Shown: piece by piece, positions 11,728 through 33,755 of the stretch
Position numbering within the stretch: the first letter of the stretch is position 1
Layout: every line of letters starts with the position of its first letter
Assembly (NCBI GenBank): GCA_027460465.1
Contig: JAPZAV010000108.1
Span: 1 to 33,755 of the forward strand
Source of the DNA: Candidatus Methanoperedens sp.
Lineage (GTDB): Archaea; Halobacteriota; Methanosarcinia; Methanosarcinales; Methanoperedenaceae
Direction: 5' to 3'
Length of the DNA stretch: 33,755 nt
Notes under the pieces: generated by a model
Told to the model about the DNA's origin: nothing
What the model saw: only the letters and a program-made list of their open reading frames with translations
The model's database searches: none
Position numbers and translations under genes: made by a program

Positions 11728-11789
11728 ACCCGATAAGGTTCGATTTCTTTGTGAATAATACAAATTTTATATCATTTTTGATTTTTTGA

Positions 11790-13085: not shown

Positions 13086-13499
13086 TTCAATGTTCTTCAA
13101 ATACTTTCGATCATACAAGTATTCTATTAGATTATCATAACCCAGAGCGCTTATTACTTCAACAAAGAAATAATAAGAGTTCAAATCACTCTCCCAATCC
13201 ATATGTTTTATTTTTTCCTCAATGATTTTTTCATTAACTTTTCCTTTATTAATGCGTTCAAATACAAGATAGCGATTGAAAATATTGTCAGGCAGCTTCT
13301 CAGGTTCTGCATATTCAAGAGATATGCCTGCTTCTGGTGAAGAGATTTCGAGCAAAGTGAGATATGTTATTAAGTCTTCCTCACCAAAGAATACTGGTGG
13401 GTCTTCCAAAAATATACGCAGGTTCTTTTCTGGCTCTTCTAATTTTCTTCCTTTTTCTTCGATTGCATCCAGCAATTCAGAATCAGGTTCATAGTTTGC

Positions 13500-13754
13500 A
13501 TATATCTTTAGCTTACCACCTTCTGCCCTGACTTTAAATTCCTCAGTTCTGTTTTTATCGGGTTCTATATTTACCTTGGTTTTTTCATTGTTGAGGGCGA
13601 TTGAAAGATGGCTCTTTCCGGAAGATACATTTATAGTTTTACCGTTGTTGATTTTATCAATTTCTGCTGTTTCTGCCCAATCAATATTAAAATTCTGTTT
13701 AACAAATTTTATGAGCCTTGATTGATCTTTTCCTGGAACATCATCCCAGCTAAA
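13500..13754 (-). repeat. Copy 1 of an 85-residue module shared with the 31-kb membrane protein
   Basis: The module runs from FSWDDVPG to GGKLKIY and aligns without gaps over 85 residues with FSWDEIPG...DKLNIY at 31153-31407; I count 38 identities. Over 13642-13710 versus 31295-31363 the DNA matches at 57 of 69 bases. The core FNIDWAETAEIDKINNGKT is best conserved. It sits between unrelated sequences in the two hosts, so it behaves as a transferable coding unit. Confidence 0.75.
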
Positions 13755-14470
13755 AGCATAAGCATCTTGCAGAGCGATCAAAGCTCTCTGCAATTTTCCT
13801 TCGCTTAAAATTCGTTCATAAAGTCTGGGCCATCGCTCCCTGATGCATACTAACTTGAACAGCACTTTCTTATCAAATAAGATATCAAATACTTTTTCTG
13901 GAGTAAAAATACGTGTGATTTCCTTCTTCAAAGCCGCTGGTTCTTCAATTTCTTCTCTGCCTCTACCTTCAATTCTTTTCCCTGGTTTAGGTCTTTCAAA
14001 TTCCTTTAAAATCGATTCAACTTTCATCTCGAATATGCTTTTGATCAGCTTTGTCGCATTCACTGCCCTCTTGATTTTCCTCGGATTGCCACCGATGCTG
14101 TGAAGAACCAGCTTCGTGCATTCCTCGATCCCCTCGCTGCCTGTCAGGGACTTCAGATACCCTTCTATAGCTTTTTCGCTTATTCTTGGAATATAAAATT
14201 CAGCCTGAACTATTTTATCAAAATAATTTTCATAGATTTCCTCTTCATATCTCTTTTTAAGTGCACTATCCAGTATCTTGTAGTCGCATCCCAGGATGAA
14301 AACGCAGCCTTTGATATCAAGGAAGATCTTCAGACTGTTCAGGAAATCGATCAATTTTTCAGGTATCCTATCCAGATCGTCAATAAAAATGACTATCTTC
14401 TTTTTTTGTGTCCCCTCTGTCTCTTCCCTGATCTTTTTCTTGAATTCTTCGATCTTGGTCACCCGCTCGA

Positions 14471-14773
14471 TCACTGCTTTCGTATCCTCATCTGACCATT
14501 CCTTAAATGGACTTGCTTTCCTGCTCTTCTTAAACAAATCCAGAATGAATTGAAAAATATGGTCTTATAGCCTTTTTCTTTCAGCTTTTCCTCCATGATC
14601 TTCATGAGACTTGTCTTTCCAGAGCCCCAGCCTCCAAAAATACCGATGGTGAACGGGGTATCTTCCCAGTGTATGCGCTCGATGGTGGAGATCATGCCAC
14701 CTGCATACTCTCCAAAACCGAGTTTATCCTCCCCTGAACTCACAACCGCAACATCAGAGAATCTCGATACCAT
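14471..14773 (-). pseudogene. KAP-family P-loop NTPase, N-terminal part with Walker A
   Basis: From the ATG at 14773 the protein begins MVSRFSDVAVVSSGEDKLGF, then FGEYAGGMISTIERIHWEDTP and a Walker A loop, FTIGIFGGWGSGKTSLMK (about residues 42-59), followed by MEEKLKEKGYKTIFFN. After FFN the family normally has a conserved Trp-containing segment and a long helical stretch. Here the frame instead yields WICLRRAGKQVHLRN and stops at 14471, while the sensible continuation (LDLFKKSRKASPFKEW) is in another frame. The missing middle suggests a deletion near 14550 rather than a single lost base. Its start overlaps the end of a small upstream remnant. Confidence 0.75.
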
Positions 14774-17349: not shown

Positions 17350-19230
17350 TTACCTGATCGCATTTACAGGGATCCAGAATGTAAAGGTGCTCCCTTCGCC
17401 GTGCTTGCTCTCGACCGTGATACTGCCCCCATGCAGTTCAACAAGTTTCTTTGAAATCGCAAGCCCGAGCCCAGTACCTCCATATCTCCTTGATATACCT
17501 GAATCTATCTGCTCGAATTCCATGAACAGTTTGCCTATATCTTCTTCTTTGATCCCGATACCTGTATCAGCTACGGAGATCCTTGCCATATCTCCGTCCT
17601 TCTTCGCTGTTATTGTAATACTTCCTCCTCCACGCTTACTGAATTTCACAGCATTGCTGAGAAGGTTGAAAAGCACCTGCTTGAACCTCTGCTGGTCTGC
17701 TTCAATGAAATCAAGTTGAGGATCAAGTTCAGTTTTAAGTTCGATATTCTGCTTTGCTGCCTTTTCTTTGATAAGACTGATGGTCTCGTTTATGACTCCA
17801 GGCACATGCAGCTTTTCGATTATAAGTTCAATTTTTCCAGCCTCTACCTTGGAGATATCGAGAATATCGTTGATGAGATTGAGCAGAAATCTGCTGCTTG
17901 TAAGAATGTTATTCAGATAGTGCTCCTGCTTTATGTTCAGTTCTCCGATTTTCTTTTGCTTCATGAGCTCTGAAAAGCCAATTATCGAGTTCAGCGGGGT
18001 TCGAAGTTCATGGCTCATGTTTGCCAGGAACTCTGATTTCGCTTTGCTTACATATGCAAGGCGCTCATTTTCATTTCGCACTTCCTCTCCTTTTTTGCGT
18101 TCTGAGATATCACGTAGGAAGCCGCTGTAGAAAGTCTCATTCCCGCTCTTCCATGTTCCAAGTGAAAGCTCAAATGGGAACTCACTGCCGTCCTTCCTGA
18201 GTCCGTGCAGTTCTATCATTTTTCCAATGATGTGTTTCTCGCCATTCGAAAGTAATCTCTCCAGACCTTTTTTATGAGCATCTCTGTACCGCTCAGGCAT
18301 CAACAGAGCTACTGGCCTGCCGCGTACATCTTCATTTTCATAGCCAAACATGTTCTGTGCACGTTTATTCCAGAAAACGATGCGTCCGTTCAGGTCAGAG
18401 GTGATGATCGCCTCATTGGCTGACTGCGCAACCGAACGGAAGCGCTCCTCTGCCTGAGAAAGCTTTTCATAGGGCAGCTCAATCGCAGACCTGTACATGC
18501 CAAGATACATGAACAGGAAACCAGTAATTATCAGTAGATGTCCTGAAAGTTCATAATAGAAATAGATCAAGTCACTGACGACAACACAAATTGAACCGTA
18601 AATAAGAAAAATCAGATTCTTCTGGTTTGTTCTCCTGAACCGTCTTGCATACAGGTAGGTCGCACATAAAATGACCCCTGTGGATATTGACATTGCGGTT
18701 CTTATTTCAGAAGTACCCATTAAGGGCAGATAAACAGGATAATTGAGCCCGGTAATAAAGGAGACTGATGATAAAAAGATAATCAAAGCGAGCAGGACAG
18801 GTTTTCTGGTTAACCGCGGACATGTATCTTTATAAACAAATGCACTTGCAAGAAGCAATGGAGCCAGAATGAGCCTGGACATGATAAAGAAAATAGCTGA
18901 TTTCTGATGTGTGTTCTTTGTGATGAAATCAGGCATAAAAGGGTAAGAGAATGTATGGAGCAGAATTAAAAAACCCACAACAAAGAAAGTCCCGCCTATG
19001 AAAAGAGAATGATTATCCCTGCTTTTATCGTATGCGTGCCATGTGATTGTAAATATTGAAAAAGAAACGAAAATAGCTAAAAATTCGGGTGCAACCTCAA
19101 GATAACCTTCCAGTGCCTCCTGATTTGTGATCAGTGAATCTATCGCTTCTTCAAGAAAATATCCAGTAAGAAACACTGCAGTAATAATGAGCATCAATTT
19201 CAATATGTGTTTCACGTTTTCACTGATCAT
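17350..19230 (-). CDS. MASE3-PAS sensor histidine kinase
   Basis: The 626-residue protein starts with about 240 residues of hydrophobic segments, probably seven helices, with the look of a MASE3 membrane sensor (for example TITWHAYDKSRD and GGTFFVVGFLILLHTFSYPF). A PAS domain follows (about 265-385: ANEAIITSDLNGRIVFWNK, GRPVALLMPERYRD, then SGFLRDISERKK). The kinase core has the H-box MSHELRTPLNSIIGFSE (His near residue 406), N-box QVLFNLLSNAVKFSKRGG, G1 VADTGIGIKEED and G2 YGGTGLGLAISKKLVE. It has no receiver domain and no regulator gene beside it. It is divergent from the 12-haem cytochrome across a shared 85-base promoter region, so it may respond to respiratory state. Confidence 0.9.
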   Translation of the reverse strand: MISENVKHILKLMLIITAVFLTGYFLEEAIDSLITNQEALEGYLEVAPEFLAIFVSFSIFTITWHAYDKSRDNHSLFIGGTFFVVGFLILLHTFSYPFMPDFITKNTHQKSAIFFIMSRLILAPLLLASAFVYKDTCPRLTRKPVLLALIIFLSSVSFITGLNYPVYLPLMGTSEIRTAMSISTGVILCATYLYARRFRRTNQKNLIFLIYGSICVVVSDLIYFYYELSGHLLIITGFLFMYLGMYRSAIELPYEKLSQAEERFRSVAQSANEAIITSDLNGRIVFWNKRAQNMFGYENEDVRGRPVALLMPERYRDAHKKGLERLLSNGEKHIIGKMIELHGLRKDGSEFPFELSLGTWKSGNETFYSGFLRDISERKKGEEVRNENERLAYVSKAKSEFLANMSHELRTPLNSIIGFSELMKQKKIGELNIKQEHYLNNILTSSRFLLNLINDILDISKVEAGKIELIIEKLHVPGVINETISLIKEKAAKQNIELKTELDPQLDFIEADQQRFKQVLFNLLSNAVKFSKRGGGSITITAKKDGDMARISVADTGIGIKEEDIGKLFMEFEQIDSGISRRYGGTGLGLAISKKLVELHGGSITVESKHGEGSTFTFWIPVNAIR

Positions 19231-19254: not shown

Positions 19255-19291
19255 AGATTTATTAATGATTATCATAATAATGATATTTATA
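19255..19291. promoter_or_regulatory. Divergent promoters for histidine kinase and 12-haem cytochrome
   Basis: Between the start codons at 19230 (-) and 19316 (+) lie a minus-strand TATA-like TTAATAAAT (19255-19263) and a plus-strand TATTTATA (19284-19291). Each is 25-32 bases from its start codon, so both transcripts would be leaderless. ATGATTATCAT (19265-19275) is a perfect palindrome between them and could bind a common regulator. Confidence 0.5.
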
Positions 19292-19315
19292 GTTATCCTA
19301 TATCTCACCACATAT

Positions 19316-20251
19316 ATGAAAAAAATGATCCTGGTTTCAATAATAGCTCTTTTACTGTCCCTGGTTGCTTCTATGCAGGTGGTGAATTCAATAAGTAAGC
19401 CCTCTGCGTGTCTGAATTGCCATGATCTAAAGCACCAGAATAATTCGCTGTTTCAGGATCATTCCGACAGGGGCATCAATTGCATAGACTGTCATTCCGG
19501 TCAGGGCATCAGAGGGTATGTCGAATCGAGAGAAATGTTGATAAACGCTATTGTGCTGGAAAAATCCAGTCCAGTCCTGCGCTATTTATATCAGAACAAC
19601 TCCTATAATTCAAGTTTTATTCACCTGAAGCCAGACTGTATGAAATGTCATGAGGGTGTAAAAAGCCTTTATTTCAATCACTCAGATGCAGCAAACTGCA
19701 CCCGGTGCCACAAAGTTTTTGGAGCGCAGGTGCAGCCTGAGACAGGTTTCTGGAAAAAAATGGGAACTGGAGGCCACAGGAACAAGACCTGCGAGGACTG
19801 CCATACCACAGGCTTCAGGATCCCTGCGTGCACAGACTGCCACATTCCCCACAGAGAGGGAGCGAACTGGGATAACGGTGTTTGCCTGGCATGCCATAGC
19901 AGCCCCCACATACCTGTAAAGAGCGGAAGCTTCAATGGGATTATTCCAAAAGAGAACTGCGGTGCATGTCATAATAGCGCCTATGAAACCCTTACGTTCT
20001 ATAACAGCAAGCACAATCAATTGAGCTCATGTACTTACTGCCATGCTTCTCACGATGAGAAGAAAAAATGCTTTGACTGCCATCTTGGACAGCATCTCTC
20101 CCATCCGTTTGCCAGGGAAAACTGTGCGGCATGCCACGGAAAAGCTGCGTGCAAGGACTGCCATACAGAGCCGCATGCACCGTTGCGCCTTCCCAAAATA
20201 ACCACGAAAGATCAGTTCAATAACTATGCGGCCACAAGGAAAGGTCACTGA
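19316..20251 (+). CDS. Dodecahaem c-type cytochrome, secreted or membrane-anchored
   Basis: From the ATG at 19316 the 311-residue product begins with a signal anchor (MKKMILVSIIALLLSLVASM) and has twelve CxxCH sites: CLNCH, CIDCH, CMKCH, CTRCH, CEDCH, CTDCH, CLACH, CGACH, CTYCH, CFDCH, CAACH and CKDCH. Many extra His residues could be distal ligands. Upstream in-frame codons from 19265 would add a second hydrophobic stretch but lie over the promoter, so I use 19316. The arrangement resembles NapC/NrfH-like or octahaem-type electron-transfer proteins, but I recognise no enzymatic signature. It is divergent from the histidine kinase, and its last seven bases overlap the end of the convergent small cytochrome gene. 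Confidence 0.9.
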   Translation: MKKMILVSIIALLLSLVASMQVVNSISKPSACLNCHDLKHQNNSLFQDHSDRGINCIDCHSGQGIRGYVESREMLINAIVLEKSSPVLRYLYQNNSYNSSFIHLKPDCMKCHEGVKSLYFNHSDAANCTRCHKVFGAQVQPETGFWKKMGTGGHRNKTCEDCHTTGFRIPACTDCHIPHREGANWDNGVCLACHSSPHIPVKSGSFNGIIPKENCGACHNSAYETLTFYNSKHNQLSSCTYCHASHDEKKKCFDCHLGQHLSHPFARENCAACHGKAACKDCHTEPHAPLRLPKITTKDQFNNYAATRKGH

Positions 20252-21036
20252 TACCTTCCTTTCTTCATACTGATATTGTCATGCTCATAGGTCGGGGGAA
20301 GGATCAGGTTGATATCCACATTGACATCAGAATGGCATCCCATGCATGTGTAATAGCCCCTGGATATGTAAGAGCCATTGACATTTCCGTGCGTGTATCC
20401 GAAGAGCGGGTATGCATCATACGGGGATGACTGGTTACTTGTGGTGAGATAATACTCGCTGTGGATATTATCCACGCTTATATTGTATCCCGCAGCCGTG
20501 ATATTTGAGTTGATGCCAAGCAGCGAGGGATCATTGTACATATATATCCTGTTTCCATGACATCTATCGTCATCGCATGAGCTCACTATCGCGGTACCTG
20601 CATGCGCCTCGATGCCGAGCAGAGAGCGGCTGTGGCACAGCATGCAGATCTCATCACCATCCATGGCCCCGTTCCCGTTCTTATCAAGGGATTCGTTCAT
20701 GTACTGACCTGTATTGCTGCTGTTGATCCACACGCTTCCGTTCCAGTTCCATATATGACCTCCGTTTACGGTTATATTTCTGCTGCTTTTGTCGTACGAT
20801 ATGCCGCCGATCGTGAAATAGGTGGTGTAATTGTAATTCAATCCTGCCTCTTTATGTTTTAAATTGACGTAATTGGGAAGCTCAAGCTGGTTCTTGATAT
20901 CAGAGTGACAGGTCAGGCAGCTGATGTTGGCAGAACTGTAAAAAGTATGCTGGTTCGCAAACAGGGTTGCCACGTTCGGTATGGCTGATACTGCAAGCGC
21001 AATCAATGCAATATAGATCAGCGTAATTCTGTTCAT
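20245..21036 (-). CDS. Small multihaem cytochrome, four putative haem sites
   Basis: The ATG at 21036 has GGAGGT four bases upstream, which falls inside the last codons of the preceding gene, so the two are coupled. An ATG at 21087 would lie within that gene and is rejected. The 263-residue product has a signal segment (MNRITLIYIALIALAVSAIP) and the haem sites CLTCH, CMLCH and CMGCH, with an unusual CDDDRCH (C-x4-CH) between them. Its N-terminus (LFANQHTFYSSANISCLTCH) resembles that of the tetrahaem protein at 32 kb (LFSGQHSFDKAGNGTICTKC). Several N-glycosylation sequons are present, so the protein faces outside. It is the last gene of the giant cytochrome operon. Confidence 0.87.
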   Translation of the reverse strand: MNRITLIYIALIALAVSAIPNVATLFANQHTFYSSANISCLTCHSDIKNQLELPNYVNLKHKEAGLNYNYTTYFTIGGISYDKSSRNITVNGGHIWNWNGSVWINSSNTGQYMNESLDKNGNGAMDGDEICMLCHSRSLLGIEAHAGTAIVSSCDDDRCHGNRIYMYNDPSLLGINSNITAAGYNISVDNIHSEYYLTTSNQSSPYDAYPLFGYTHGNVNGSYISRGYYTCMGCHSDVNVDINLILPPTYEHDNISMKKGRYQ

Positions 21037-21037
21037 G

Positions 21038-21481
21038 CTACCTCCTGCTGTTGTTAAAGAACTCCTTAGCCCTCTGATATATGGCATTCCTGTTCGAACT
21101 GTTGATCAGATAATGGGCAGACTGGCTGTTCGCCACGATCTCGCCGTTATGGATCGTGATATTCCCTGTGGTAAGATTGTAGTTCGTGTGGCAGTCTGTG
21201 CAGTAGATGTTCTTGGTAAGATTGTGAGCCGCATTGATATTGTACACCTCTGTTGCATTTGGATTGTAGCCGTGACAGGCGCATCCAATGTTCTTATGCG
21301 CGTTTGATGCAATGTTGATGGTCGCTACCTTTTCAGGATGGCATTTATTGCAAAAATCCGCTGCAGTGGTCTTGTTCTCGTATAAAATATGGCTTCCAGA
21401 GAAAAGTCCAGAGACGCTGATCATCAGGAAGACCATTATCACACCAATGCCCGCTAAAATCAGGATAATTCTTCTGTTCAT
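21038..21481 (-). CDS. Small multihaem cytochrome with a CxCH site
   Basis: A 147-residue protein with an N-terminal anchor (IILILAGIGVIMVFLMISVS), two CxxCH sites (CNKCH, CTDCH) and a contracted site, CACH, in NIGCACHGYN. The sequence GLFSGSHILYENKT before the first haem relates it to the two other small cytochromes in this window. The start at 21481 has AGGTGA upstream, and that site overlaps the stop codon of the giant cytochrome (21485-21487), so the two genes are coupled. It is probably an accessory electron carrier partner of the giant protein. The CACH site may bind haem by unusual attachment or may be vestigial. Confidence 0.85.
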   Translation of the reverse strand: MNRRIILILAGIGVIMVFLMISVSGLFSGSHILYENKTTAADFCNKCHPEKVATINIASNAHKNIGCACHGYNPNATEVYNINAAHNLTKNIYCTDCHTNYNLTTGNITIHNGEIVANSQSAHYLINSSNRNAIYQRAKEFFNNSRR

Positions 21482-21484
21482 AGC

Positions 21485-24400
21485 TCACCTGTAATATTTA
21501 TCAGGGTATGTGTGGCAGTAATCGCAGTCCTTTTCTTTCCAGTAGCCGTAGGTCGTGATCGCTTTGTTATAGAGCGCTGCGCTGTGGCATGTGGTGCAGT
21601 CCGTGATGTTGACCACATTTGTTCCGTTGTAGAAATACGTGCTCGGTTTCGCTGTGATATTGTGCCTGTCCTTATCTGGTATCGGGTCAGCCTGCACTGC
21701 ATGGCAGTCCTCACATGCCTTTCGCGCTTCTATGTTCTTATGCCCTTTTGTATGGCAGATCGTGCAGGATAACGAGTTATGCAGGCTCAGGTCATACCTG
21801 CCAGGGTCCACGTACCTGTCAGGTCTGTACGTGGTGTTCATAGCCTCGAAGGAATAGTGGCAGCCAGTACATGAGCCCCAGGTAACGTTGTGCAGGAATG
21901 GGGTTACCGTCGTGTTCGAGGACAGATTGATCCCGTGACACAGCCTGCATGCGGCATCGCTGTAATCCTTCAGCGAATGGTTATAATACGTCGAACGGTT
22001 GTAGATGCTGGCTGCGTATGTCCCGTTCGTGATCTCAGGAGGAACAGAGAGATTGGCTTTCGTGAATGTCTGGGTCATATCGGTGTAGTTCTTCCCTCCG
22101 CCTGAGTAGCCCTGATAATGGCATGAAGAGCACCACGAGCTTCCGCTGATGCTTGAGTTCACGATATTGTTCCCTCTCCAGCTCGCAGGTCTCCCCAGGG
22201 CAGTGGCATTGTGTTTTGTATCGTTGTGGCAGTATGTACATGCTGTCAGAGCAGAATTCCAGTAGCTTGAGTTCCACACACTCCCGTTCGAGGTATTATC
22301 GCTGTGCGCCAGAGGCGAGGGGATCTTTGGCGGGACTTTTGAGAGCTTTGAGTCAACGTTTGCTGTCTGGTGGCAGGTGGTGCAGTTTACAGCAGTGGTA
22401 TTATTTGTGCTATAGGTGGCATTGGGCTGGAGATATTTCTCAGGATGTATATCCCTGCCTGTGTTCTGGTGGCATTCGGTGCAGTTCACTGAATTGTTAT
22501 GCTTTTCTTTAGATTCTGTAACAGCGCTGCTGTAGTTTGTGCCTCCGCTTCCGTTATTCCCATGGCAGACAAGGCAGTAACTTGAGTTTGGCAGGCTCAA
22601 ATCCGGCTTAAAGAGCGTTGAGTTGTGCATCCAGCCAGTATTGTGGCACTGCGAAGTGATACATGTCGGGTTCGAGGAATTGTAGCGCAGGCTGTGGTTT
22701 GAGATACTGGTGTTATAAGCAGGATCTATCATTGCCGGGGCAAAAGCAGAGCTTGTGTTCTGGTGGCAGTAGGAGCAGTTGGCGCTTGAGCCTATCCTGA
22801 GATCTGCTCTCTTCTTTCCGTAATGGCTCGAGCTGTTATTACCGCCGTTTGCTCCACCGTACACAGCGCCGCTCCCTGAGTCAGGGTCGTTTGCAAAGAT
22901 CATCATCTCGCTTAAATTATGGCATTTGTAGCAGACTGCGGCACTGGGTGTCCTTATATCCGAACCATTCCAGTAATGCTCCGTGACATTGAGTACGGCA
23001 GAAGGCGTATAGTTGAAGTTCTGCGCAGCGCCCGGAACATGGCAGTCTGTGCAGTTGTACGGGATCTTATATTTCGTTGGATGCGCATAAGGTGTCTGCG
23101 GTTCACTGCCGTTGCTGTGGCATGCCCAGCACCGCCTGTTGTTTGAATAATAAGCTGTGGCATTTGAAGCTGATGTGCCGTTGTTGAGGTTCCTGTGCAG
23201 TGCATTCGTATCATTGGTTGAGGTCACATTGATACGTGAGAGCAGAACGATACCATTCAGATCGTGGCAGTCCACGCAGTTGGCTCCCCCGACTCTTGTC
23301 AGGTTGTGCATGAGCTGCGTTATTCTTGTGAAGCCGTACGGGTATCCGTGGCAGCGGTTGCATGAGGAGTCGTTCATGTTTGGATAATACTTGGTGTAAC
23401 CTGAGTGGTTGGTGTACTCGTATATGCTGGTATTGGCTCCATACTGCGAATTGCCACTGATTTCAGGAGGAACTGGCACGTTGAAAAAAACATTAACCAT
23501 ATCGTTATAGTTATCCGTGCCGTTGGCGTAGCCCTGCCAGTGACATGATGCACACCAGGTGGTATTGCCTAAAGTGGAGTTAACAGTATTGTTCCCCTTA
23601 AACAGACCGACATTGCCCAGTATGTTAACATTATGTATCTCATTAGAATGGCAGTACTCGCACCATGTAAGCTGGTTGCTGTTGTTCCAGTACCCAGGCG
23701 TCTGGTTCCATTTCGCACCAGCCGTCGGGTCATTGCTGTGCTCAAGAGGTACGGCGACCTGTGGCGCGCCTTTGCCAGTATAGTTCCCTGCCTTGATCCT
23801 GGAAAGGAGAGTATTTAAAAAGCTTGAATTCTGATGGCAGTTGGTGCAGTTGCCTGTTGCTGGATTATGGTTGTTATGGTTTAATGTTACATACGTGGCG
23901 TTCTGTGCAACGACCTGTATCACGTGCACATCGTCGCTGTGGCAGACGGTGCAGCCCACACTGTTATTATGTTTTGAATAATCCTGATGGCAGGTTGTAC
24001 ACTGAGTGCTTTCAGTATCACTATTTCTGATAAATCTTTGTGCAGTATCTGGTTTGGTTATGGCATGCATCGGACCATGGCAGATGAAACAGGGCACAGT
24101 GGAGTTGGGCGTATGGAACGTGGCATTGAATGACGAGCCGTTGTTGTTGGAATAAAGGCTGAGAGCAGTCGAGACAGTGGCACTGCTCAGTGTGGACTTA
24201 TTTGAGATGTCCTTCCTGTCCCAGCTTGACCAGTTTCCATGGCATCCTGAGTTGTAGCATGAGTAAATGAGCTGGTTACTGTTGTGCGTTGTATAGCTGC
24301 CGTGGCAGTTAGAATTGCTGCATGAGATGTTCCTGTGAACATCAGCCGGTTTATTCCAGTGATTGATGTTGGAATTCGTCCCCCCGGGTCTGCCGTCAAA

Positions 24401-27400
24401 TGACTGGTGGCAGAGCGTGCAGTTAAAGTTCTGGTGTTCACCCTTTTTGCCTGTTGTCGGATCCCTCCCCGAGAGATAAGGGGAATTGGCTGTCGCACCG
24501 GTAGAAGGGTTTTTTTCTCCATGCCCGGTACATGAGCCTGATGCAAAGGTGCATCCCCACCAGTTGTAGATAAAGGTTGTGTTCACACCCAGACTTCCAT
24601 TTGTGGCCCTGATCTTCCAGCTTCCAAAATAGTTCCTTGCATTCAGGTCAAAGCTGAAATTGGCAAGACCCCGGGAGTTCGTGGTATCGTTCACAATTGT
24701 TAAAGCCGTCCCATTGGGGAAATATAACGTAAAGCTGACCACCTTCCCTGATACAGGTTCCCCGTATCTATTTAAATAAAGCGCAGTGGCGTTTATCTTG
24801 GTGTTCTTACCTGTCCAGTAATTCGAATTCCAGTCTCTATCTGGAATAGCGAAGCCAGCCATAGTGTCAGCTTTTGCTCCAGTGCGCCTGGGGTCGTCCA
24901 GGATTACATACCTGTTGGCGGCAGCAAGTATTTTACCCTCACCTGCATAGTAAAGAGACTCATTGTGAAAGTCAGGCGGCAGGATGGCTCCTGCTCCCTC
25001 TATATGGCATAAATAGCACTGGTTGTTCTTGGTTTCAGTATGAGGTCTTACTGGATCGAGTCTTGGGTCGCGAGCTTGACCCCATATTGAAGCATTTGTA
25101 GCATTTAAATGGCAGTAAATGCACCCCTCTGGCTTGACGTTCCCTATAGTCTCTACAAGTGACGAGGTAGAACCGTAATGAGAGATGCTCTCAGCAGCCG
25201 AAATATTTCTTGGATCTGTGATATTTGCAATACCAAGATTTACACTGTTGTTATGGCATGTAATGCATGTAGCATTAAAGGTCAGTATTCTGGTTTGAGA
25301 AGTAGATATATCTATATGATTGATAACTGTGGCTGCATTGTCTGCATTTGGATACGGTTTCGTATCAGTACTGTGGCAGCTATAGCACGTATACGGGCGG
25401 CTAAAGATATCGCCCATGCTGCTATTTCCTGGCTGGGAGCCATCTGATTGATGACAGCCCCAGCACTTCTTGTTATCCGCTGGCGCATATGAGGAGTTAG
25501 CAGCATTGCTGTTCAGATTTGCATGGACTGAGAGCTTCATGGCAGTATTATTGACATGGATCTCTGTTCTGCTGCTGCCGATATCATGGCATCCCAGGCA
25601 GTCAGGTCCGCCTCCGCCCACAGAGACACCGTGCATGAACTGGGTGATTCCGGTGTAGGATCTGGAGCCATTATGACATGAGTAACAGACGCTGTCAATG
25701 AAGGTCGCAGTAGTGGAATGGTCGCGCCCTCCCCTGAAGTAAGTTGAATCCCGAATATTAGAAGGCGGTTCAAGCGAGCCATCAGCAGTGAATGCAGAAA
25801 TCATATCTGAGTAATTGGCGTAGCCAGGATAGTGGCACGAGGGGCACCATGTTGTATTTCCTATGGTGGAATTCTTTGTATTGGTTCCCATGAACCGCGC
25901 GGGTCTGCCAAAGGCACTTTGTTTATGACTGGTATCACTGTGGCAGTATCTGCAGGCTGAGCCCGGATCCTGCGGAGTCCAGAAGTTGTCCCAGACAGTC
26001 CCTGCAATGTTATTATCGCTGTGCAGAAGGGGAACTGCAATCTGGGGGGGATTCCCGCCTGTCTGGTTTCCTGCAAGACTTTGAGCCTTAAGGCTGCTAT
26101 AAAAAGTGCTGTTCTGATGGCAGTTTGAACAGTTGCCTCTTGCAGGATTTGGGTTATATCTATCTGAGGTTATATATGTGGCATTCGTTGCAAAAACCCG
26201 TATGACATGCACATCATCGCTGTGGCACAGGGTGCAGTTTACGGTATTGTTATGCTTACTGTACGTCGTATGGCAGACCGTACATTGCTCGTTCTCTGTT
26301 ATGTTATTTTTAATAAACCGCTGGGATTCAACCGGCTTGGTTATATTGTGCATCGGACCGTGGCAGGTGAAACACGGCACTGTGGAGTTGGGAGTATGGA
26401 ATGTGGCGTTGAAGGATGAGCCGTTGTTATAGGAATAAAGGCTCGTGGCGGTTGAGACTGTGGCGCTGCTGAGCGTGGATTTGCTTGAGATGTCTGCCCT
26501 GCTCGTGTGGCAGCCTGAATTATAACAGGAGTTAATAACAGCATTTGTTCGATGAGAATTACCTGACTGATGACAATTTGTATTACTGCAGGATATACTC
26601 CTGTGAACATCTAATGGGTTATTTGTATGATTGATGGCTGGATTCTGGCTGCCAGGAAGACCATCGTAGGATTGATGACAGAAGGTGCAATTAGTAGCTG
26701 CAGCATAGTGATTGGATATTCCATCTACAGTTGTATCCCGTCCGGATAGATACGGCGAATTTACATTGGCACTGTTGACGTTATCTGGAGGTCTGTTGTT
26801 TGATTGATGATTAAAATTACATGATCCTGCATTATACGCGCACCCCCACCAGTTATAGATGAAGGTTGTGTTCGCGCCCAGAGTTCTGTTCGATGCACCG
26901 ATCTTCCAGTTTCCGTAGTAGTTCCTTGCGTTCAGATCGAAGCTGAAATTAGCCAGTCCCAGCAAATTAGTAGTATCATTGATTGATGCGAGAGCAGTTC
27001 CATTCGGCAGGTATAATGTAAAATTTATGACCATATTCGGAACAGGTGCTCCGCCCGCATCAATATAAAGCGCTGTAGCATTTATTATCGTATTCCTTCC
27101 TGTCCAGTAGTTCCAGCTATTGTAGTCATAAGCTGGATTCACAAAACCAGAACCAGTGTCCGCTGTTCCTGTTCTCGGATCATCCAGTATCACGAATCTG
27201 CTTGTTGCTACCCATATTTTACTCCCTGTAAATTCTGGTGTAAGTTTAATATCTGCATTCAGCACATCTGCATCACTTACCGTTACTGTAGTTGAATTAT
27301 CGGTGTAGTTCGCTTTGCTGGCTGTTAGAATATAAACCCCGTTGTATATTGTGAAGTTATAGAATCCTGTTGCATCTGTGGTTGTGTTCAGACTGGTGTT

Positions 27401-30400
27401 CGTTGTAACATTGGCACCGCTGATCGGAAGTCCGCTTGATTCATTGGTAACGTAACCCGACAAAACATAGGTCGGCATAGGTGATAGCGAAATGTTGGCT
27501 TCAGTAACATTCGAACCACTGATCGTCACGGTCGTGGAGTTTGTATCATATCCAGTGAGATTGGCGGATATGATATAAGTACTGTTGAGCAGACCCGTGA
27601 AGTTATAAAACCCGCTGGCGTTCGTGATCGTGGATAGACTGGTGTTCGTAGTAACAGTAGCGCCGCTCAACGGAAGACCGCTGGATGTGTCGGTCACGTA
27701 TCCAGATAATGAGTATTTCGTAATATTACTTTCTTCTTCAGTTAAAGTAGAAAGAGAAGGTTCAGGCTCTGTGTATCTTCTTATAATAATATTTCTTATG
27801 CGTCCTGCGTCCTGCTGCAGCCATATCCCGAACTGGCCCGGGTTCTCGTTGTCGCTTGCGGCCGCATGAGTTCCTGAGAATCTTGAGCCTCCCCATCCGC
27901 CGCTGGAGTTATTGTAGTATGCCTTAAGATTTGTGGGGTTTATTCCCCATGATGCTATTCCAATCCTTGTCCAGGTTGTCGCAGGAAAAGCGCCCAGAAG
28001 ACCGTTTGTCACAACCACGATTCCTCTGTCGTCTGCTGTTATGTCGTCGTGTGAAGCGTAAGATCCTGCCAGATAAGTGGAATCCGCCATCTCATAGTAA
28101 TACCAGTGGCTGCTGTCCTCTGTTCCCCCGCTTCCTGTCCCGTTCCACCTTGAAAGAGGGCCGCTTGTCATGTCAGTTAGATAGGCGTTTGTCTGGTATT
28201 CTTCGTACTCTACATAGGCATCCCGCTCCCCAAGATTTGTCGGCCTCATGCTGTCTGCGAAGTTGTCTCCTGTATCAAAAGTATAGTAACCTGCAGCATT
28301 CCATGCGATGCTGTTAGCCCACACCCCCCCCTGGGCAGTCAAGTCGACTCTTCCCTGGGTGTACTCGCTCTCACGGTCACTTGATGCGTTGTCATACCAG
28401 AGATACACCTTTGTCCTGTTATTCGGTCCTGCGTCTGCTGTGGGGTTTCCGTAGTAGAGGTAGTAATTGTTGTCGTAAGACGATGCCGATATGTTTGCCT
28501 GCAGCATGAAGGTAATGTTTGTTGCTGTGCTGTTAGGATTGAGTATCTCCCGGTCAAGTTCTGTATTGCCCGTGCCGTTCCAGTAGACTATTCTTGTGTC
28601 GTTCCCGTTGCCCATGAACTTTGTGCCTGTTGTGTTTGTTGTGAGGCGCACGGTGTAATTCTTGTATCCTTTATAAGGGGAGTTGGCGCCTGTTGTCACG
28701 TTTATCTGTTTCCTGTATGTCCAGGATGCATTCCACCAGGATCCAGCCGGATCAACCGCTATGTACCACGGGCGGGCTTCGGTGAAGGTCTTAGCGGAGC
28801 CTCTGTTCTGGTAATCTATTTCCAGTGGTCCCAGAGCATAAAGGTACGGCCATTTATGCGGAACTGAGTAAGAGTATATTACGGGTGTTTTTCTTTCGGT
28901 TAAGTTTATTTTCCATGTGAGGATCTTTGCGTCTTCATCAAAGCTTATTTCTGCGTCTGTTTTGATATTGAATTCGAGCGGAACATATTCCCTGACTATG
29001 ATGGGATCCAGACCTGTGAATGATTCTATTTCGATTTTTACATCAAACCAGTCCTGCTTTGTGGGGTCTATCTTGCTTTGAGCCGTTCTAACTATGTCGA
29101 ACTCGCAGTCCTGTTGAACCAGGAAATGAGTGTTGAAGGAAACTACAATATCATCAACCAGAGCAGTAATATTGATTTCATGAACTCCTTCTAATTCTGC
29201 CGGATATATTGCATTGAAAATTCCGCATTCACCACTTGAAGCAATTGTTCCATTGCCAGTGGAATAAGTTGTTTTTTCTCCATTTGGATTATTAACCAGG
29301 AGAGAGATATCAGAGTTACAAACAGGATGCCCATACCTGTCCAGGACAACTATAATCAATTCAACAGGTTCGCCAGGTTTGTAAATACTCTTTCTTGTAT
29401 TCAAAGAGACTAAACCCCATTGAAACTCCTGTTCCTGAGCATAGGTTATGCCGTCCTTAACTAATTCTACCTTCAATGTGTATATTCCAGGCTTAATCGC
29501 TCTACTCCCTGGCAACTTGAGAGAGATCTTTCCTTCTCTTAACTCTTCAACATCAGGCTCAATATCGGTTAATTCTCCATTATTATAAACAAAAGATTTT
29601 ATCTCTTTCTTTATTGCCTGTGCATTAAGAGCGTTCTCTCTTACATCACGAACACCAGGGCCTGAACTCTTAGATTTAAATTCGTCCTCACCTATATATT
29701 CGAATATGAACTCAGGATTTTCATCCAGACTGAAATGCTTTTTCTTTGCTTCCAAAAAAGGCAATGCACCAGATCTAAGATTATTCTTTCCTTTAAACTG
29801 CTTGACTTCGTTAATTCCTGCGCCCACTGCAAATATGCTCAAAGAGCCCGCTGTTGTGCTCACCATATTGTTTGTTGCATTGATTTTAGTGGGTAAATCA
29901 TTCCATGTCGCATTTGAGATATCATAGCGATAAATAGCCAATTCTTCTTCATCCAGACCTTTCAGTTCCTCATCTGTGTACTGTATGACTATATCGGCTT
30001 CTGCGAACGAAACATTGACATCTCTGATCTGCACGTATTTCACAGGTATACCAGGCGCTGAGGTATTCACAGGCATATCAGTGCCGTAATTTTCAAGCAC
30101 CACGTTGCTGTTGTGAGAGTCTCCTGAGATCCTGAGACTGATCGAGATGTTCTTTGTTTCAAGGGCATCAAAGGATATCCGTGCATTTGGGACGTCTTTC
30201 CAGCTTATGGAGCTGACATTTGAACTCTGATTGCTGGAAGAGTCAGCTATTATTATTTCTATCGTACCGTTCAGGAGATTGCCCGTGCCGTCCAGAAATA
30301 CAAGATCCCCGCTCGTCCTCTTTTCCTGGGTGAGCGAGGGCAGGGGGTGAAGCATCAATAAAGCTACCGCTGCACCTGAGAGTAGGATCAGGGCAAATAT

Positions 30401-30451
30401 CAGCAGTCTTATGATGCCCTGCTTTGACAGTTTTTCCCGTCGGGTTATCAT
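21485..30451 (-). CDS. Giant extracellular multihaem cytochrome, 43 putative haem sites
   Basis: The 2988-residue protein has a membrane segment at about residues 13-34 and then about 1,200 residues without haem. These include an MG2-like region (about 320-560), a DUF2341 domain (about 571-900, starting SWWNASWTYRKQINVTTG), and two carboxypeptidase-regulatory-like domains (about 912-994 and 994-1075, each starting LSGYVT). From residue 1250 onward I count 38 CxxCH and five C-x4-CH sites (CSNTNCH, CYNSGCH twice, CSNSNCH, CITSQCH). The haem part repeats: unit 1 (about 1082-1840, 16 haems) and unit 2 (from about 1843) each start with an Ig-like VILDDPR...FIYNWWGC domain, and a degenerate third heme unit follows. 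N-x-S/T sequons are dense throughout. The likely role is extracellular electron transfer through the S-layer. It heads a coupled three-gene operon. Confidence 0.92.
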   Translation of the reverse strand: MITRREKLSKQGIIRLLIFALILLSGAAVALLMLHPLPSLTQEKRTSGDLVFLDGTGNLLNGTIEIIIADSSSNQSSNVSSISWKDVPNARISFDALETKNISISLRISGDSHNSNVVLENYGTDMPVNTSAPGIPVKYVQIRDVNVSFAEADIVIQYTDEELKGLDEEELAIYRYDISNATWNDLPTKINATNNMVSTTAGSLSIFAVGAGINEVKQFKGKNNLRSGALPFLEAKKKHFSLDENPEFIFEYIGEDEFKSKSSGPGVRDVRENALNAQAIKKEIKSFVYNNGELTDIEPDVEELREGKISLKLPGSRAIKPGIYTLKVELVKDGITYAQEQEFQWGLVSLNTRKSIYKPGEPVELIIVVLDRYGHPVCNSDISLLVNNPNGEKTTYSTGNGTIASSGECGIFNAIYPAELEGVHEINITALVDDIVVSFNTHFLVQQDCEFDIVRTAQSKIDPTKQDWFDVKIEIESFTGLDPIIVREYVPLEFNIKTDAEISFDEDAKILTWKINLTERKTPVIYSYSVPHKWPYLYALGPLEIDYQNRGSAKTFTEARPWYIAVDPAGSWWNASWTYRKQINVTTGANSPYKGYKNYTVRLTTNTTGTKFMGNGNDTRIVYWNGTGNTELDREILNPNSTATNITFMLQANISASSYDNNYYLYYGNPTADAGPNNRTKVYLWYDNASSDRESEYTQGRVDLTAQGGVWANSIAWNAAGYYTFDTGDNFADSMRPTNLGERDAYVEYEEYQTNAYLTDMTSGPLSRWNGTGSGGTEDSSHWYYYEMADSTYLAGSYASHDDITADDRGIVVVTNGLLGAFPATTWTRIGIASWGINPTNLKAYYNNSSGGWGGSRFSGTHAAASDNENPGQFGIWLQQDAGRIRNIIIRRYTEPEPSLSTLTEEESNITKYSLSGYVTDTSSGLPLSGATVTTNTSLSTITNASGFYNFTGLLNSTYIISANLTGYDTNSTTVTISGSNVTEANISLSPMPTYVLSGYVTNESSGLPISGANVTTNTSLNTTTDATGFYNFTIYNGVYILTASKANYTDNSTTVTVSDADVLNADIKLTPEFTGSKIWVATSRFVILDDPRTGTADTGSGFVNPAYDYNSWNYWTGRNTIINATALYIDAGGAPVPNMVINFTLYLPNGTALASINDTTNLLGLANFSFDLNARNYYGNWKIGASNRTLGANTTFIYNWWGCAYNAGSCNFNHQSNNRPPDNVNSANVNSPYLSGRDTTVDGISNHYAAATNCTFCHQSYDGLPGSQNPAINHTNNPLDVHRSISCSNTNCHQSGNSHRTNAVINSCYNSGCHTSRADISSKSTLSSATVSTATSLYSYNNGSSFNATFHTPNSTVPCFTCHGPMHNITKPVESQRFIKNNITENEQCTVCHTTYSKHNNTVNCTLCHSDDVHVIRVFATNATYITSDRYNPNPARGNCSNCHQNSTFYSSLKAQSLAGNQTGGNPPQIAVPLLHSDNNIAGTVWDNFWTPQDPGSACRYCHSDTSHKQSAFGRPARFMGTNTKNSTIGNTTWCPSCHYPGYANYSDMISAFTADGSLEPPSNIRDSTYFRGGRDHSTTATFIDSVCYSCHNGSRSYTGITQFMHGVSVGGGGPDCLGCHDIGSSRTEIHVNNTAMKLSVHANLNSNAANSSYAPADNKKCWGCHQSDGSQPGNSSMGDIFSRPYTCYSCHSTDTKPYPNADNAATVINHIDISTSQTRILTFNATCITCHNNSVNLGIANITDPRNISAAESISHYGSTSSLVETIGNVKPEGCIYCHLNATNASIWGQARDPRLDPVRPHTETKNNQCYLCHIEGAGAILPPDFHNESLYYAGEGKILAAANRYVILDDPRRTGAKADTMAGFAIPDRDWNSNYWTGKNTKINATALYLNRYGEPVSGKVVSFTLYFPNGTALTIVNDTTNSRGLANFSFDLNARNYFGSWKIRATNGSLGVNTTFIYNWWGCTFASGSCTGHGEKNPSTGATANSPYLSGRDPTTGKKGEHQNFNCTLCHQSFDGRPGGTNSNINHWNKPADVHRNISCSNSNCHGSYTTHNSNQLIYSCYNSGCHGNWSSWDRKDISNKSTLSSATVSTALSLYSNNNGSSFNATFHTPNSTVPCFICHGPMHAITKPDTAQRFIRNSDTESTQCTTCHQDYSKHNNSVGCTVCHSDDVHVIQVVAQNATYVTLNHNNHNPATGNCTNCHQNSSFLNTLLSRIKAGNYTGKGAPQVAVPLEHSNDPTAGAKWNQTPGYWNNSNQLTWCEYCHSNEIHNVNILGNVGLFKGNNTVNSTLGNTTWCASCHWQGYANGTDNYNDMVNVFFNVPVPPEISGNSQYGANTSIYEYTNHSGYTKYYPNMNDSSCNRCHGYPYGFTRITQLMHNLTRVGGANCVDCHDLNGIVLLSRINVTSTNDTNALHRNLNNGTSASNATAYYSNNRRCWACHSNGSEPQTPYAHPTKYKIPYNCTDCHVPGAAQNFNYTPSAVLNVTEHYWNGSDIRTPSAAVCYKCHNLSEMMIFANDPDSGSGAVYGGANGGNNSSSHYGKKRADLRIGSSANCSYCHQNTSSAFAPAMIDPAYNTSISNHSLRYNSSNPTCITSQCHNTGWMHNSTLFKPDLSLPNSSYCLVCHGNNGSGGTNYSSAVTESKEKHNNSVNCTECHQNTGRDIHPEKYLQPNATYSTNNTTAVNCTTCHQTANVDSKLSKVPPKIPSPLAHSDNTSNGSVWNSSYWNSALTACTYCHNDTKHNATALGRPASWRGNNIVNSSISGSSWCSSCHYQGYSGGGKNYTDMTQTFTKANLSVPPEITNGTYAASIYNRSTYYNHSLKDYSDAACRLCHGINLSSNTTVTPFLHNVTWGSCTGCHYSFEAMNTTYRPDRYVDPGRYDLSLHNSLSCTICHTKGHKNIEARKACEDCHAVQADPIPDKDRHNITAKPSTYFYNGTNVVNITDCTTCHSAALYNKAITTYGYWKEKDCDYCHTYPDKYYR
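21850..27220 (-). repeat. Internal duplication of the haem-array unit (period ~2.29 kb)
   Basis: Comparable landmarks recur with an offset of 2,289 bases (for example the CAGTT of the NWWGC region at 24561 and 26850). Unit 1 spans about 24,930-27,210, unit 2 starts near 24,925. Order and spacing of haem motifs match in both: CTxCHQS, C-x4-CH, CYNSGCH, the TVPCFxCHGPMH segment, CTxCH, and so on. A third, diverged heme stretch (about 21,850-22,680: TTCHQ, then TACTYCH, SWCSSCHYQGY, CRLCHG) aligns with unit 2 but lacks the Ig-like opening. Confidence 0.75.
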
Positions 30452-31751: not shown

Positions 31752-31787
31752 AAAAAAAAATTAACTACTGATTCTTCATCAGTAGTT
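31752..31787 (-). terminator. Hairpin plus T-tract after the tetrahaem cytochrome gene
   Basis: Perfect ten-base arms AACTACTGAT (31763-31772) and ATCAGTAGTT (31778-31787), a five-base loop, and then nine Ts on the minus strand (31752-31760). The stop codon of the tetrahaem gene lies in the upstream arm. It looks just like a bacterial intrinsic terminator. Confidence 0.75.
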
Positions 31788-32405
31788 GGTAGTGTTGGTA
31801 GTGACATTCGTAGCGTTGAACGTCATTGTGCCTGATCTGTTGTAGACATCGTACTCATAGCTGTAGCCGCCCTTCCTTACCCAGGTCATCTCCACTCTGG
31901 CTTTGGTGTGGCAGCCCACGCATGCTTCGTTTGCACCCTTCAACCAGGGCTGCTGTGTGGCATTGTCTGCGAAGATCCTGTGTGCATCGTCTGTGAAGTT
32001 CACTGCATAATGGCAGCTCACACACTCCACTGTCACTGCGGCATGGAGGGTATAAGTCACATTGGTACCATTGGCATACGTGAAGTTCCCTGTCAGGAGA
32101 TTGAGTCCAGCGTTAATACCGCTGCTTCCGTTGGTCTGGTTGCCTGTGGGTATGAGGCCGGCATTGATCGTGCCAGCGCTGTGGCATGCTTTACACTGAT
32201 AGCCATTAGCGTCATTTATCATTGTGGTATGGTAGGCACTGCCTGCTAATTCTGCTGCAACATCTGAGTGGCATTTGGTACAGATCGTACCGTTACCTGC
32301 TTTGTCGAAAGAGTGCTGACCTGAGAACAGTGACAGCGCATTGGGTAATGCAAATAGACCCAGCATTATTACTGCTATCAACAGCACTAAAGTCCTGTTC
32401 TTCAT
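31779..32405 (-). CDS. Tetrahaem c-type cytochrome, secreted
   Basis: A 208-residue product from the ATG at 32405, which has GAGGTGA a few bases upstream; the GTG three codons earlier falls in that site. After a signal segment (LVLLIAVIMLGLFALPNALS) come four haem sites: CTKCH, CKACH, CVSCH and CVGCH. N-glycosylation sequons and a Thr/Asn-rich end (TNVTTNTTNY) suggest an exterior position. Its N-terminal region resembles that of the two small cytochromes after the giant gene. It has its own operator-flanked promoter and an intrinsic-like terminator, so it is probably a monocistronic, regulated unit, possibly an electron shuttle to the giant protein. Confidence 0.88.
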   Translation of the reverse strand: MKNRTLVLLIAVIMLGLFALPNALSLFSGQHSFDKAGNGTICTKCHSDVAAELAGSAYHTTMINDANGYQCKACHSAGTINAGLIPTGNQTNGSSGINAGLNLLTGNFTYANGTNVTYTLHAAVTVECVSCHYAVNFTDDAHRIFADNATQQPWLKGANEACVGCHTKARVEMTWVRKGGYSYEYDVYNRSGTMTFNATNVTTNTTNY

Positions 32406-32443
32406 AAGATTCACCTCTTTAACTTTTCTTTGATCATTATTTT

Positions 32444-32487: not shown

Positions 32488-33078
32488 TCATATAATACCA
32501 GGGGCTTTCTTATAAGCCGTGATCAATGTATCGAAATGATCTGTCCTTTTTTTCCATTTTTCACTGTCCTGGATCTCTTCATGGCATCTTGCACAGTTCG
32601 TATGGCATGAGATACAGTTTACACCCCTGGGTCTGTGGATCGTTATGAGATTTCCACCGCTCGGAAGAAGTGGATCTGGATATGCATGGCACCTGCCGCA
32701 CGCCTCATCCCCGATGGATGGAATCTTCGGGATTTTATCCCCGTGGCATTTTGCGCATGTCACGTTATCGTTCACTGGATGCTTTTCATGGGAAATCCTA
32801 TGGCATTTCAGGCAGTAGGCTCCTCCTCTTGCATGTTCATTGATCGATTCCGCCTGTGGGATGAACTTTTTTCCTGATAGATGGCATTCCTCGCAGATGT
32901 TCTCTTTCATGGTAACCAGCAATGTAAAATTGGTATAATTGACGACAGTGCTCTCTTTCTGTACAATTTCCTTCTCCTGCGGCTGCTTATCTGCTGTGAT
33001 AGCAGGCACGACGAATCCAAGGGATATGCCGATAACCACACTGAATATAAGTATCAGAAATACGGTTTCCTTTTCCAT
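32488..33078 (-). CDS. Membrane-anchored hexahaem c-type cytochrome
   Basis: A 196-residue protein with an N-terminal helix (VFLILIFSVVIGISLGFVVPA) and six CxxCH sites: CEECH, CLKCH, CAKCH, CGRCH, CISCH and CARCH, the last two only three residues apart (CISCHTNCARCH). Several His residues between motifs could supply distal ligands, as in NapC/NrfH-like quinol dehydrogenases, a resemblance I cannot confirm. It starts six bases after the stop of the partial surface protein upstream, so they form an operon. A membrane quinol-linked role would match the menaquinone genes in this window. Confidence 0.88.
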   Translation of the reverse strand: MEKETVFLILIFSVVIGISLGFVVPAITADKQPQEKEIVQKESTVVNYTNFTLLVTMKENICEECHLSGKKFIPQAESINEHARGGAYCLKCHRISHEKHPVNDNVTCAKCHGDKIPKIPSIGDEACGRCHAYPDPLLPSGGNLITIHRPRGVNCISCHTNCARCHEEIQDSEKWKKRTDHFDTLITAYKKAPGII

Positions 33079-33084
33079 AATGAT

Positions 33085-33755
33085 CTATGCTATTTTTTTA
33101 TTAAACGTAAGAATCAGAAATATTGCAAATAGAAACGTGGTTATTGTTACCGCACCCTCAAGCCAGGGCAGCCTTTCATTGATCATCTGGACAAGTCCCT
33201 GTTCAGACACTTTCTCAGGCGTATTCACCGGTGCAGGAGCAGTTACTGCGATCCCGGCTTTTGACTCATGCGAAAGAACCTGCAGTTTCTTAACCGGAAG
33301 CTGGGCATACCACTCAAATCCCTGATTTTTCGAACTCATCTCTGGTGCCTTAAATTCCAGTGTTCCTGGAGCAGGAGCAGAGATGTTATAGATGATGTTC
33401 GCAGTCTCCCCCGGGTTCAGGAACCCTGAGAAAGACATCGCTCCCGAGAGAAACGTGGCATTCCTGGGCACTGTCTCTTTAACCGTGATATTGGTCGGGA
33501 TGTCGCCGTTGTTTATTATTGAAAGTGTTACCTGCAGAACATTTCCTGGATATGGACTGGTATTATTGAAGCTCCTCTCCATGCCTGTATAGGGGCCTGA
33601 TACAGCTGTCCTTGGCGATTCCGATTCTTTATGCACTTCTTCCCCCCATTCGTTCCAGATAAGCTCTGCCTTTGGAAGATTGTAAACTCCCTGTCTTTTT
33701 GCCGCGAGTGTATATCTGAATTCCTTATATTCTCCTGCATTGATGTCAAAATCCC
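33085..33755 (-). CDS. Partial surface protein with C-terminal membrane helix (5' end beyond window)
   Basis: The frame is open to the right edge; 222 residues are visible up to the stop at 33085. It shows beta-sandwich repeats with a conserved-repeat (DUF11-like) look: VLQVTLSIINNGDIPTNITV and FLNPGETANIIYNISAPAPG, and an earlier DINAGEYKEFRYTLAAKRQG. A stalk of Pro/Ala residues (TAPAPVNTPEKVS) leads to a membrane helix (VTITTFLFAIFLILTF) and a short cytoplasmic KKIA tail. The protein is thus an extracellular domain anchored at its C-terminus. It lies directly upstream of the hexahaem cytochrome and may hold or present electron-transfer partners. Confidence 0.8.
   Translation of the reverse strand, partial: DFDINAGEYKEFRYTLAAKRQGVYNLPKAELIWNEWGEEVHKESESPRTAVSGPYTGMERSFNNTSPYPGNVLQVTLSIINNGDIPTNITVKETVPRNATFLSGAMSFSGFLNPGETANIIYNISAPAPGTLEFKAPEMSSKNQGFEWYAQLPVKKLQVLSHESKAGIAVTAPAPVNTPEKVSEQGLVQMINERLPWLEGAVTITTFLFAIFLILTFNKKIA

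What the first reader, a model, noticed from the sequence alone, without database searches (positions are those of the whole stretch)
21485..30451. Giant 43-haem cytochrome with adhesin-like N-terminal half
Seen: one frame of 2988 codons with 38 CxxCH and five C-x4-CH sites, a DUF2341 domain, two carboxypeptidase-regulatory-like domains, dense sequons and one N-terminal membrane segment. Established: large multihaem cytochromes of ANME archaea are linked to electron transfer across the S-layer. Inference: fusing surface-adhesive domains to a long haem array could tether a conductive protein to a mineral, partner cell or polysaccharide.
Basis: partly seen in the sequence, partly recalled or inferred. 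Interest (0 to 1): 0.8.

Follow-up and report, generated by a model that had tools for sequence, protein, structure and literature searches.

The report
Mosaic 43-haem archaeal surface cytochrome
A methane-oxidising archaeon encodes a giant electron-carrying protein whose conserved 43-haem tail is joined to an exchangeable, binding-protein-like front half, which suggests that these archaea re-equip the same molecular wire with different attachment or spacer modules.

Summary
One open frame on the MINUS strand (30451→21485, 2988 aa) carries 38 CxxCH + 5 Cx4CH = 43 haem sites. A composition shuffle gives a mean of 0.4 and a maximum of 3. In a syntenic orthologue (Methanoperedenaceae MAG FeB_1) all 43 motifs align and 46 of 49 other histidines are kept, at 60% aa identity, with purifying selection. 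The array is real: three modules of 16, 15 and 12 haems, two of them headed by an MG2-like domain.

The gene sits in a conserved locus with four small cytochromes and a convergent 12-haem NapC/NrfH-like protein. The best reading is an electron-export pathway whose terminal conduit is the giant.

The new part is mosaicism. Residues 216-912 (macroglobulin-like domains, DUF2341, lectin-like domain) have no match in the other 33 family genomes. The closest paralogue in the same genome has an FG-GAP β-propeller there instead. It nevertheless shares tracts of 93-98% nucleotide identity in the head and the C-terminal haem module, against 50-60% elsewhere.

Giant MHCs of ANME, up to 113 haems and some with putative sugar-binding N-termini, are published. 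This is a new variant of a known kind. Adhesion is plausible but undemonstrated; a stalk role is a serious rival.

The parts
21485..30451 (-). giant multihaem cytochrome, 2988 aa, 43 haem sites
30347..30415 (-). N-terminal hydrophobic segment (aa 13-35), signal anchor or signal peptide
   Evidence: no clean AxA site, crude scan not decisive
29807..30346 (-). head domain (aa 36-215), PGF-pre-PGF-like, shared by many giant cytochromes of the genus
28751..29806 (-). tandem macroglobulin/Ig-like domains (aa 216-567); first part of the exchangeable cassette
   Evidence: PF17789 weak; AlphaFold2 pLDDT 70-95 over most of aa ~281-560 and Foldseek to CD109/alpha2M/TEP1; relatives
28376..28750 (-). divergent DUF2341 domain (aa 568-692)
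27716..28375 (-). putative concanavalin/LamG-like segment following DUF2341 (aa 693-912); model poor
   Evidence: partial relatives and shared C-terminal motif; not resolved by structure or PDB profile search
27200..27715 (-). two CarboxypepD_reg-like domains (aa 913-1084)
   Evidence: relatives
26807..27199 (-). first MG2-like domain (aa 1085-1215)
24962..26806 (-). haem module 1 (aa 1216-1830), 16 haem sites
24530..24934 (-). second MG2-like domain (aa 1840-1974)
22712..24529 (-). haem module 2 (aa 1975-2580), 15 haem sites; MG2+start of module 60% identical to module 1
21488..22711 (-). haem module 3 (aa 2581-2988), 12 haem sites; most conserved part of the protein
30092..30226 (-). tract in the head (aa 76-120) 93-98% identical at nucleotide level to the paralogue on contig C9 of the same genome
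21812..22351 (-). tract in haem module 3 (aa 2701-2880) 94-98% identical at nucleotide level to the same paralogue
21038..21481 (-). 147-aa small cytochrome (2 CxxCH + 1 CxCH), 3 nt downstream of the giant
   Evidence: orthologues
20245..21087 (-). 280-aa small cytochrome (3 CxxCH + 1 longer motif)
19265..20251 (+). convergent 12-haem cytochrome with NapC/NrfH-like N-terminus
   Evidence: NrfH model E=4.4e-11 below cut-off; profile match to NrfH 2j7a; 6 of 8 homologues match PF03264
31003..31707 (-). 234-aa membrane-anchored protein without haem, conserved position
31779..32414 (-). 211-aa 4-haem cytochrome
32488..33078 (-). 196-aa 6-haem cytochrome
33085..33753 (-). DUF11/BatD-like membrane protein, cut by the contig end; full-length 658-aa orthologue in FeB_1

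Best explanation
The giant is the terminal, cell-surface conduit of an electron-export gene cluster in a Methanoperedens-type methane oxidiser. Proposed path, inferred: menaquinol -> membrane NapC/NrfH-like 12-haem protein -> small membrane-anchored 3- to 6-haem cytochromes -> the 43-haem array, probably with bis-histidine haems -> an extracellular acceptor (metal oxide, electrode or partner cell). The array is three related modules. The front half (PGF-pre-PGF-like head, macroglobulin-like domains, DUF2341/ConA-like, CarboxypepD_reg) is an exchangeable cassette that sets where the array sits or what it touches. Shown: the haem sites, their conservation, the modules, the conserved cluster, and unrelated cassettes between matching flanks in paralogues. 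Inferred: electron path, topology, binding.
For: 43 of 43 haem motifs and 46 of 49 other His conserved with FeB_1; codon-position identity 0.72/0.74/0.42. Module repeats. Same gene order around the giant in FeB_1 (L039/L048) and RBG_16 (L070); the two small cytochromes immediately downstream of a large MHC in many more loci. NapC/NrfH-like partner. Cassette absent from the other 33 family genomes, parts of it present in haem-free and haem-bearing giants of other families. Paralogue with FG-GAP cassette and shared tracts. Literature for MHC-based export in this family: PMC10542353, PMC10874420, PMC7327174.
Against: No expression, haem or localisation data. AlphaFold2 failed on the haem array (pLDDT 39), so haem spacing and wire continuity are untested. 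If the N-terminal helix is an uncleaved anchor, a distal adhesive tip is unlikely. The NapC/NrfH match is below curated cut-offs. The 12-haem protein in this window lacks the CxxCHxM signature seen in some relatives.
Confidence: 0.6

Rival explanations
1. The N-half is a passive stalk or spacer that lifts the haem array through the pseudoperiplasm and S-layer; it binds nothing specific, and cassettes vary in length and kind because only reach matters.
For: N-terminal hydrophobic core of 18-20 residues followed by a proline-rich sequence in many head-bearing giants; chain of Ig/macroglobulin-like domains; front parts of relatives range from about 530 to 2180 aa.
Against: DUF2341-ConA-like and FG-GAP modules are more elaborate than spacers need to be; signal-peptide evidence is indecisive.
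Confidence: 0.3
2. A released, matrix-embedded conductive protein: the signal is cleaved and the cytochrome sits in the extracellular matrix between cells, tethered by its lectin-like and Ig domains.
For: No C-terminal membrane helix or sorting motif, dense sequons, ConA-like segment.
Against: No clean AxA cleavage site in this or close head-bearing relatives.
Confidence: 0.2
3. Haem-based electron store or capacitor rather than a directional conduit.
For: Very many haems per chain.
Against: Every haem site is conserved in order inside an apparent electron-export cluster; storage would not require it.
Confidence: 0.07
4. Assembly chimera or pseudogene: the cassette was joined to the haem array by mis-assembly between paralogues.
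For: Longest exact match between the giant and its paralogue is 81 nt in the head and 71 nt in module 3, so a short-k assembler could in principle cross over there.
Against: The frame is open throughout. The cassette-to-haem junction lies far from those tracts. The independent FeB_1 assembly shows the same three-module array and locus. A crossover would exchange only the outer ends, not create the fusion.
Confidence: 0.03

Closest known systems
ANME MHC types A, B and C (Chadwick et al. 2022, PMC9012536)
   Same: Very large multihaem cytochromes of ANME archaea with haem-free N-terminal domains; type C lacks S-layer and C-terminal membrane helix, as here
   Different: No S-layer domain (A, B), no M6-like (B) and no pectin-lyase/beta-helix domain (C); instead MG-like/DUF2341/ConA/CarboxypepD_reg plus MG2-headed haem modules
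113-haem MHC of Methanoperedenaceae Mn-2 (Leu et al. 2020, PMC7327174)
   Same: An MnB_21 ORF with 113 CxxCH plus 7 Cx4CH has the same head, MG2 and haem modules; presumed to be this protein
   Different: 5599 aa, more module copies, C-terminal membrane segment, no DUF2341/ConA cassette
43-haem syntenic orthologue in Methanoperedenaceae MAG FeB_1 (PQAS01000033, L039)
   Same: Same locus, same three haem modules, 43 haems
   Different: Second head copy and an unassigned stretch in place of the MG/DUF2341/ConA cassette
OmcZ-type cluster of Ca. Methanoperedens (PMC10874420)
   Same: Cluster with a large (37-haem) and smaller MHCs implicated in electron export
   Different: No OmcZ or OzpA-like gene recognised in this window; no PDB profile match to OmcZ

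Membership tests
c7/c3-type multihaem cytochromes c | CxxCH/Cx4CH motifs and c7, c3 or MtrC-like domain matches over cut-off | tested here: met
   PF14522 122.8 bits, PF22113 114.4, PF14537 73.4; 43 motifs
ANME MHC type A/B | S-layer (PF07752) domain | tested here: not met
   no match in the giant; present elsewhere in the genome
ANME MHC type A/B | C-terminal transmembrane helix | tested here: not met
   hydropathy scan
[quoted passage not shown]
   no beta-helix family match, whereas the second giant in L103 has one
ANME MHC type C | no S-layer domain and no C-terminal transmembrane helix | tested here: met
DUF2341 (PF10102) | score above gathering cut-off | tested here: not met
   14.7 against 23.4 bits; intermediate homologue L106 is over it
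NapC/NrfH quinol dehydrogenases (12-haem neighbour) | match over curated cut-off and CxxCHxM first-haem signature | tested here: inconclusive
   NrfH model E=4.4e-11, 43 bits against 134.2; CHEM present in L082/L083/L087, CHDL in the window; 2j7a profile match
Adhesins | demonstrated binding to a surface or ligand | not testable with these tools
   domain types only
Extracellular electron-transfer conduit | surface location and electron transfer to an external acceptor | not testable with these tools
   inference from cluster and literature
Cytochrome nanowires (OmcS/OmcZ) | sequence relation to polymerising cytochromes or polymer formation | tested here: inconclusive
   no OmcS/OmcZ match for the array profile; polymerisation untested

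The most novel reading that the evidence does not exclude
Methanoperedens keeps a set of giant cytochrome genes that exchange recognition cassettes by homologous recombination between conserved flanks (head and C-terminal haem module), in effect re-targeting one conserved conductive array to different minerals, polymers or partner cells.
Probability: 0.25. Interest if true: 0.8.

Novelty: new variant of a known kind. Interest (0 to 1): 0.57.

Why it matters
How ANME archaea pass electrons through and beyond a proteinaceous cell wall to solids or partners is an open question. Published lists count haems and note poor conservation of MHCs. This locus suggests a reason: the haem array and its partner genes are conserved while the front half is swapped. 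That makes target specificity directly testable by expressing the cassettes alone. It also offers a defined gene set (NapC/NrfH-like 12-haem, 3-, 4-, 4- and 6-haem proteins, giant) for transcriptomic and reconstitution work.

Tried and rejected
AlphaFold2 on the haem modules with a 28-sequence alignment gave pLDDT 39, so no haem-spacing claim is made. AlphaFold2 on the cassette resolved only the MG-like part; the DUF2341/ConA part was mostly below 50. Profile searches of the DUF2341/ConA and head alignments against PDB sequences gave nothing credible. An AxA signal-peptidase scan did not separate head-bearing from headless giants, so topology is left open. The S-layer conduit reading was rejected for this protein. 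Chimeric assembly was considered and judged unlikely. A viral-contig (Borg-like) search found no relatives.

Full report
OBSERVATION. The window is the whole of contig C108 (33,755 bp) of a 2.87-Mb genome of a Methanoperedens-type archaeon. Relatives found by protein search are titled Candidatus Methanoperedens or Methanoperedenaceae. The frame is real and lies on the minus strand, 30451→21485, 2988 aa, with no internal stop. It has 38 CxxCH and 5 Cx4CH, with no unassigned CH; 86 of 93 cysteines lie in motifs. Shuffling the haem half gives 0.44 motifs on average, maximum 3.

ANATOMY. From the N-terminus: a hydrophobic segment; a head domain (aa 36-215) that in two of 13 homologues matches the PGF-pre-PGF domain of archaeal surface proteins; macroglobulin/Ig-like domains (aa 216-567, Foldseek to CD109, TEP1 and alpha2-macroglobulin); a divergent DUF2341 and probable ConA-like segment (aa 568-912); two CarboxypepD_reg domains; then three haem modules with 16, 15 and 12 sites. 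The first two are preceded by an MG2-like domain and are 60% identical over MG2 and the first part of the array; module 3 is about 30% identical and lacks MG2.

REALITY OF THE ARRAY. A syntenic orthologue in MAG FeB_1 (L039, 2662 aa) also has 43 haem sites. All 43 align, 46 of the 49 non-motif histidines of the array are conserved, amino-acid identity is 60%, and identity at codon positions 1/2/3 is 0.72/0.74/0.42. This is purifying selection on a haem array. The number of conserved extra histidines is enough for bis-His ligation of every haem; the ligation itself is inferred.

THE LOCUS. On the minus strand the order is DUF11 protein, 6-haem, 4-haem, 234-aa protein, giant, 3-haem, 4-haem, with a 12-haem gene converging from the plus strand. 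FeB_1 has the same order; RBG_16 and KR11 show large parts of it. The 147- and 280-aa cytochromes occur side by side in about 18 loci across the family, directly behind a large MHC wherever the upstream gene is complete enough to see it, with a few loci not resolved. The 12-haem protein has a NapC/NrfH-like N-terminus: NrfH model E=4.4e-11 but below cut-off; six of eight homologues match PF03264; the profile matches NrfH 2j7a; and relatives carry CxxCHEM. The paper that describes five menaquinone:cytochrome c oxidoreductase groups for this family does not mention NapC or NrfH, so this would be an additional route. That is inference.

MOSAICISM. Giant MHCs across the genus reuse the same parts in different combinations. 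Between head and haem array they carry different domains: CarboxypepD_reg in 0-5 copies, PKD (L047), FG-GAP β-propeller (L028). The cassette of this protein (aa 215-912) has no match in the other 33 family genomes. Its MG-like part is found at 54-59% identity in a haem-free 1491-aa protein of another family, and at about 40-44% in two giant cytochromes of other families. The nearest relative of the haem module is a paralogue in the same genome (L028, contig C9; module-3 identity 87%, sister with 100/100 support), whose middle is an FG-GAP propeller. Nucleotide identity between the two is 50-60% over the MG2 domain and most of the head, 93-98% over aa 76-120 and 94-98% over aa 2701-2880. Such tracts flanking unrelated middles are what recombination or gene conversion between paralogues would leave. 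The direction, the rate, and whether cassettes are actively exchanged are not shown.

MECHANISM. Best-supported reading: the surface end of an electron-export chain. Literature support for MHC-based export in this family is experimental at the level of cells and transcripts (PMC10542353, PMC10874420), not for this protein. What the cassette does is open. Recognition fits the lectin-like, propeller and PKD types and their exchange; a stalk fits the probable N-terminal anchor. The S-layer hypothesis does not apply to this chain, which has no PF07752. The genome has a separate 28-haem S-layer fusion.

COMPARISON. Chadwick et al. (PMC9012536) define ANME MHC A and B by S-layer domains and C-terminal helices, and C by a pectin-lyase-like N-terminus for which partner recognition is suggested. 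This protein fails the positive criteria of all three and shares only the absences with C. Leu et al. (PMC7327174) report 82 poorly conserved MHC families and a 113-haem record. An MnB_21 ORF with exactly 113 CxxCH (plus 7 Cx4CH) belongs to the same modular family; the identity with the published protein is presumed from the count. Hence: new variant of a known kind.

LIMITS. No expression data; one assembly of this genome; haem geometry not modelled; exact shared stretches of 81 and 71 nt with the paralogue leave a small chance of mis-joined ends. Text searches for papers combining these terms found none, but the library is open-access only.

Noticed in passing
L037, L038, L040, L082, L134, L147, L153 (C-termini of MHC ORFs): Ten multihaem ORFs end at the very C-terminus in a CarboxypepD_reg-type ending plus an extra first strand 'KPTG(T/I)ISGTVT', which looks like a donor strand for a following domain.
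   Followed up: no
L131:6542-23341: 5599-aa ORF with 113 CxxCH plus 7 Cx4CH sites; CxxCH-only counts underestimate haem number in these proteins.
   Followed up: partly
L164:2849-7378 (own genome, contig C149): 1509-aa, 28-haem cytochrome with split S-layer domain, a classical S-layer/MHC fusion in the same genome.
   Followed up: partly
L028:9863-16777 (own genome, contig C9): 26-haem paralogue with FG-GAP beta-propeller cassette, without the small-cytochrome genes beside it.
   Followed up: partly
L087:1153-4620 (own genome, contig C170): A second, diverged copy of the small-cytochrome cluster (2- to 3-haem, 4-haem, convergent 12-haem, 4-haem) near a contig end.
   Followed up: partly
window 11772-14537: 921-aa KAP-type NTPase with many repeats of an 'ADKIKASSDP' unit.
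   Followed up: no
window 17350-19230: MASE3-PAS histidine kinase next to the cytochrome locus; possible regulator.
   Followed up: no
window 21038-21481: The 147-aa small cytochrome has an unusual CxCH (CACH) site besides two CxxCH.
   Followed up: no
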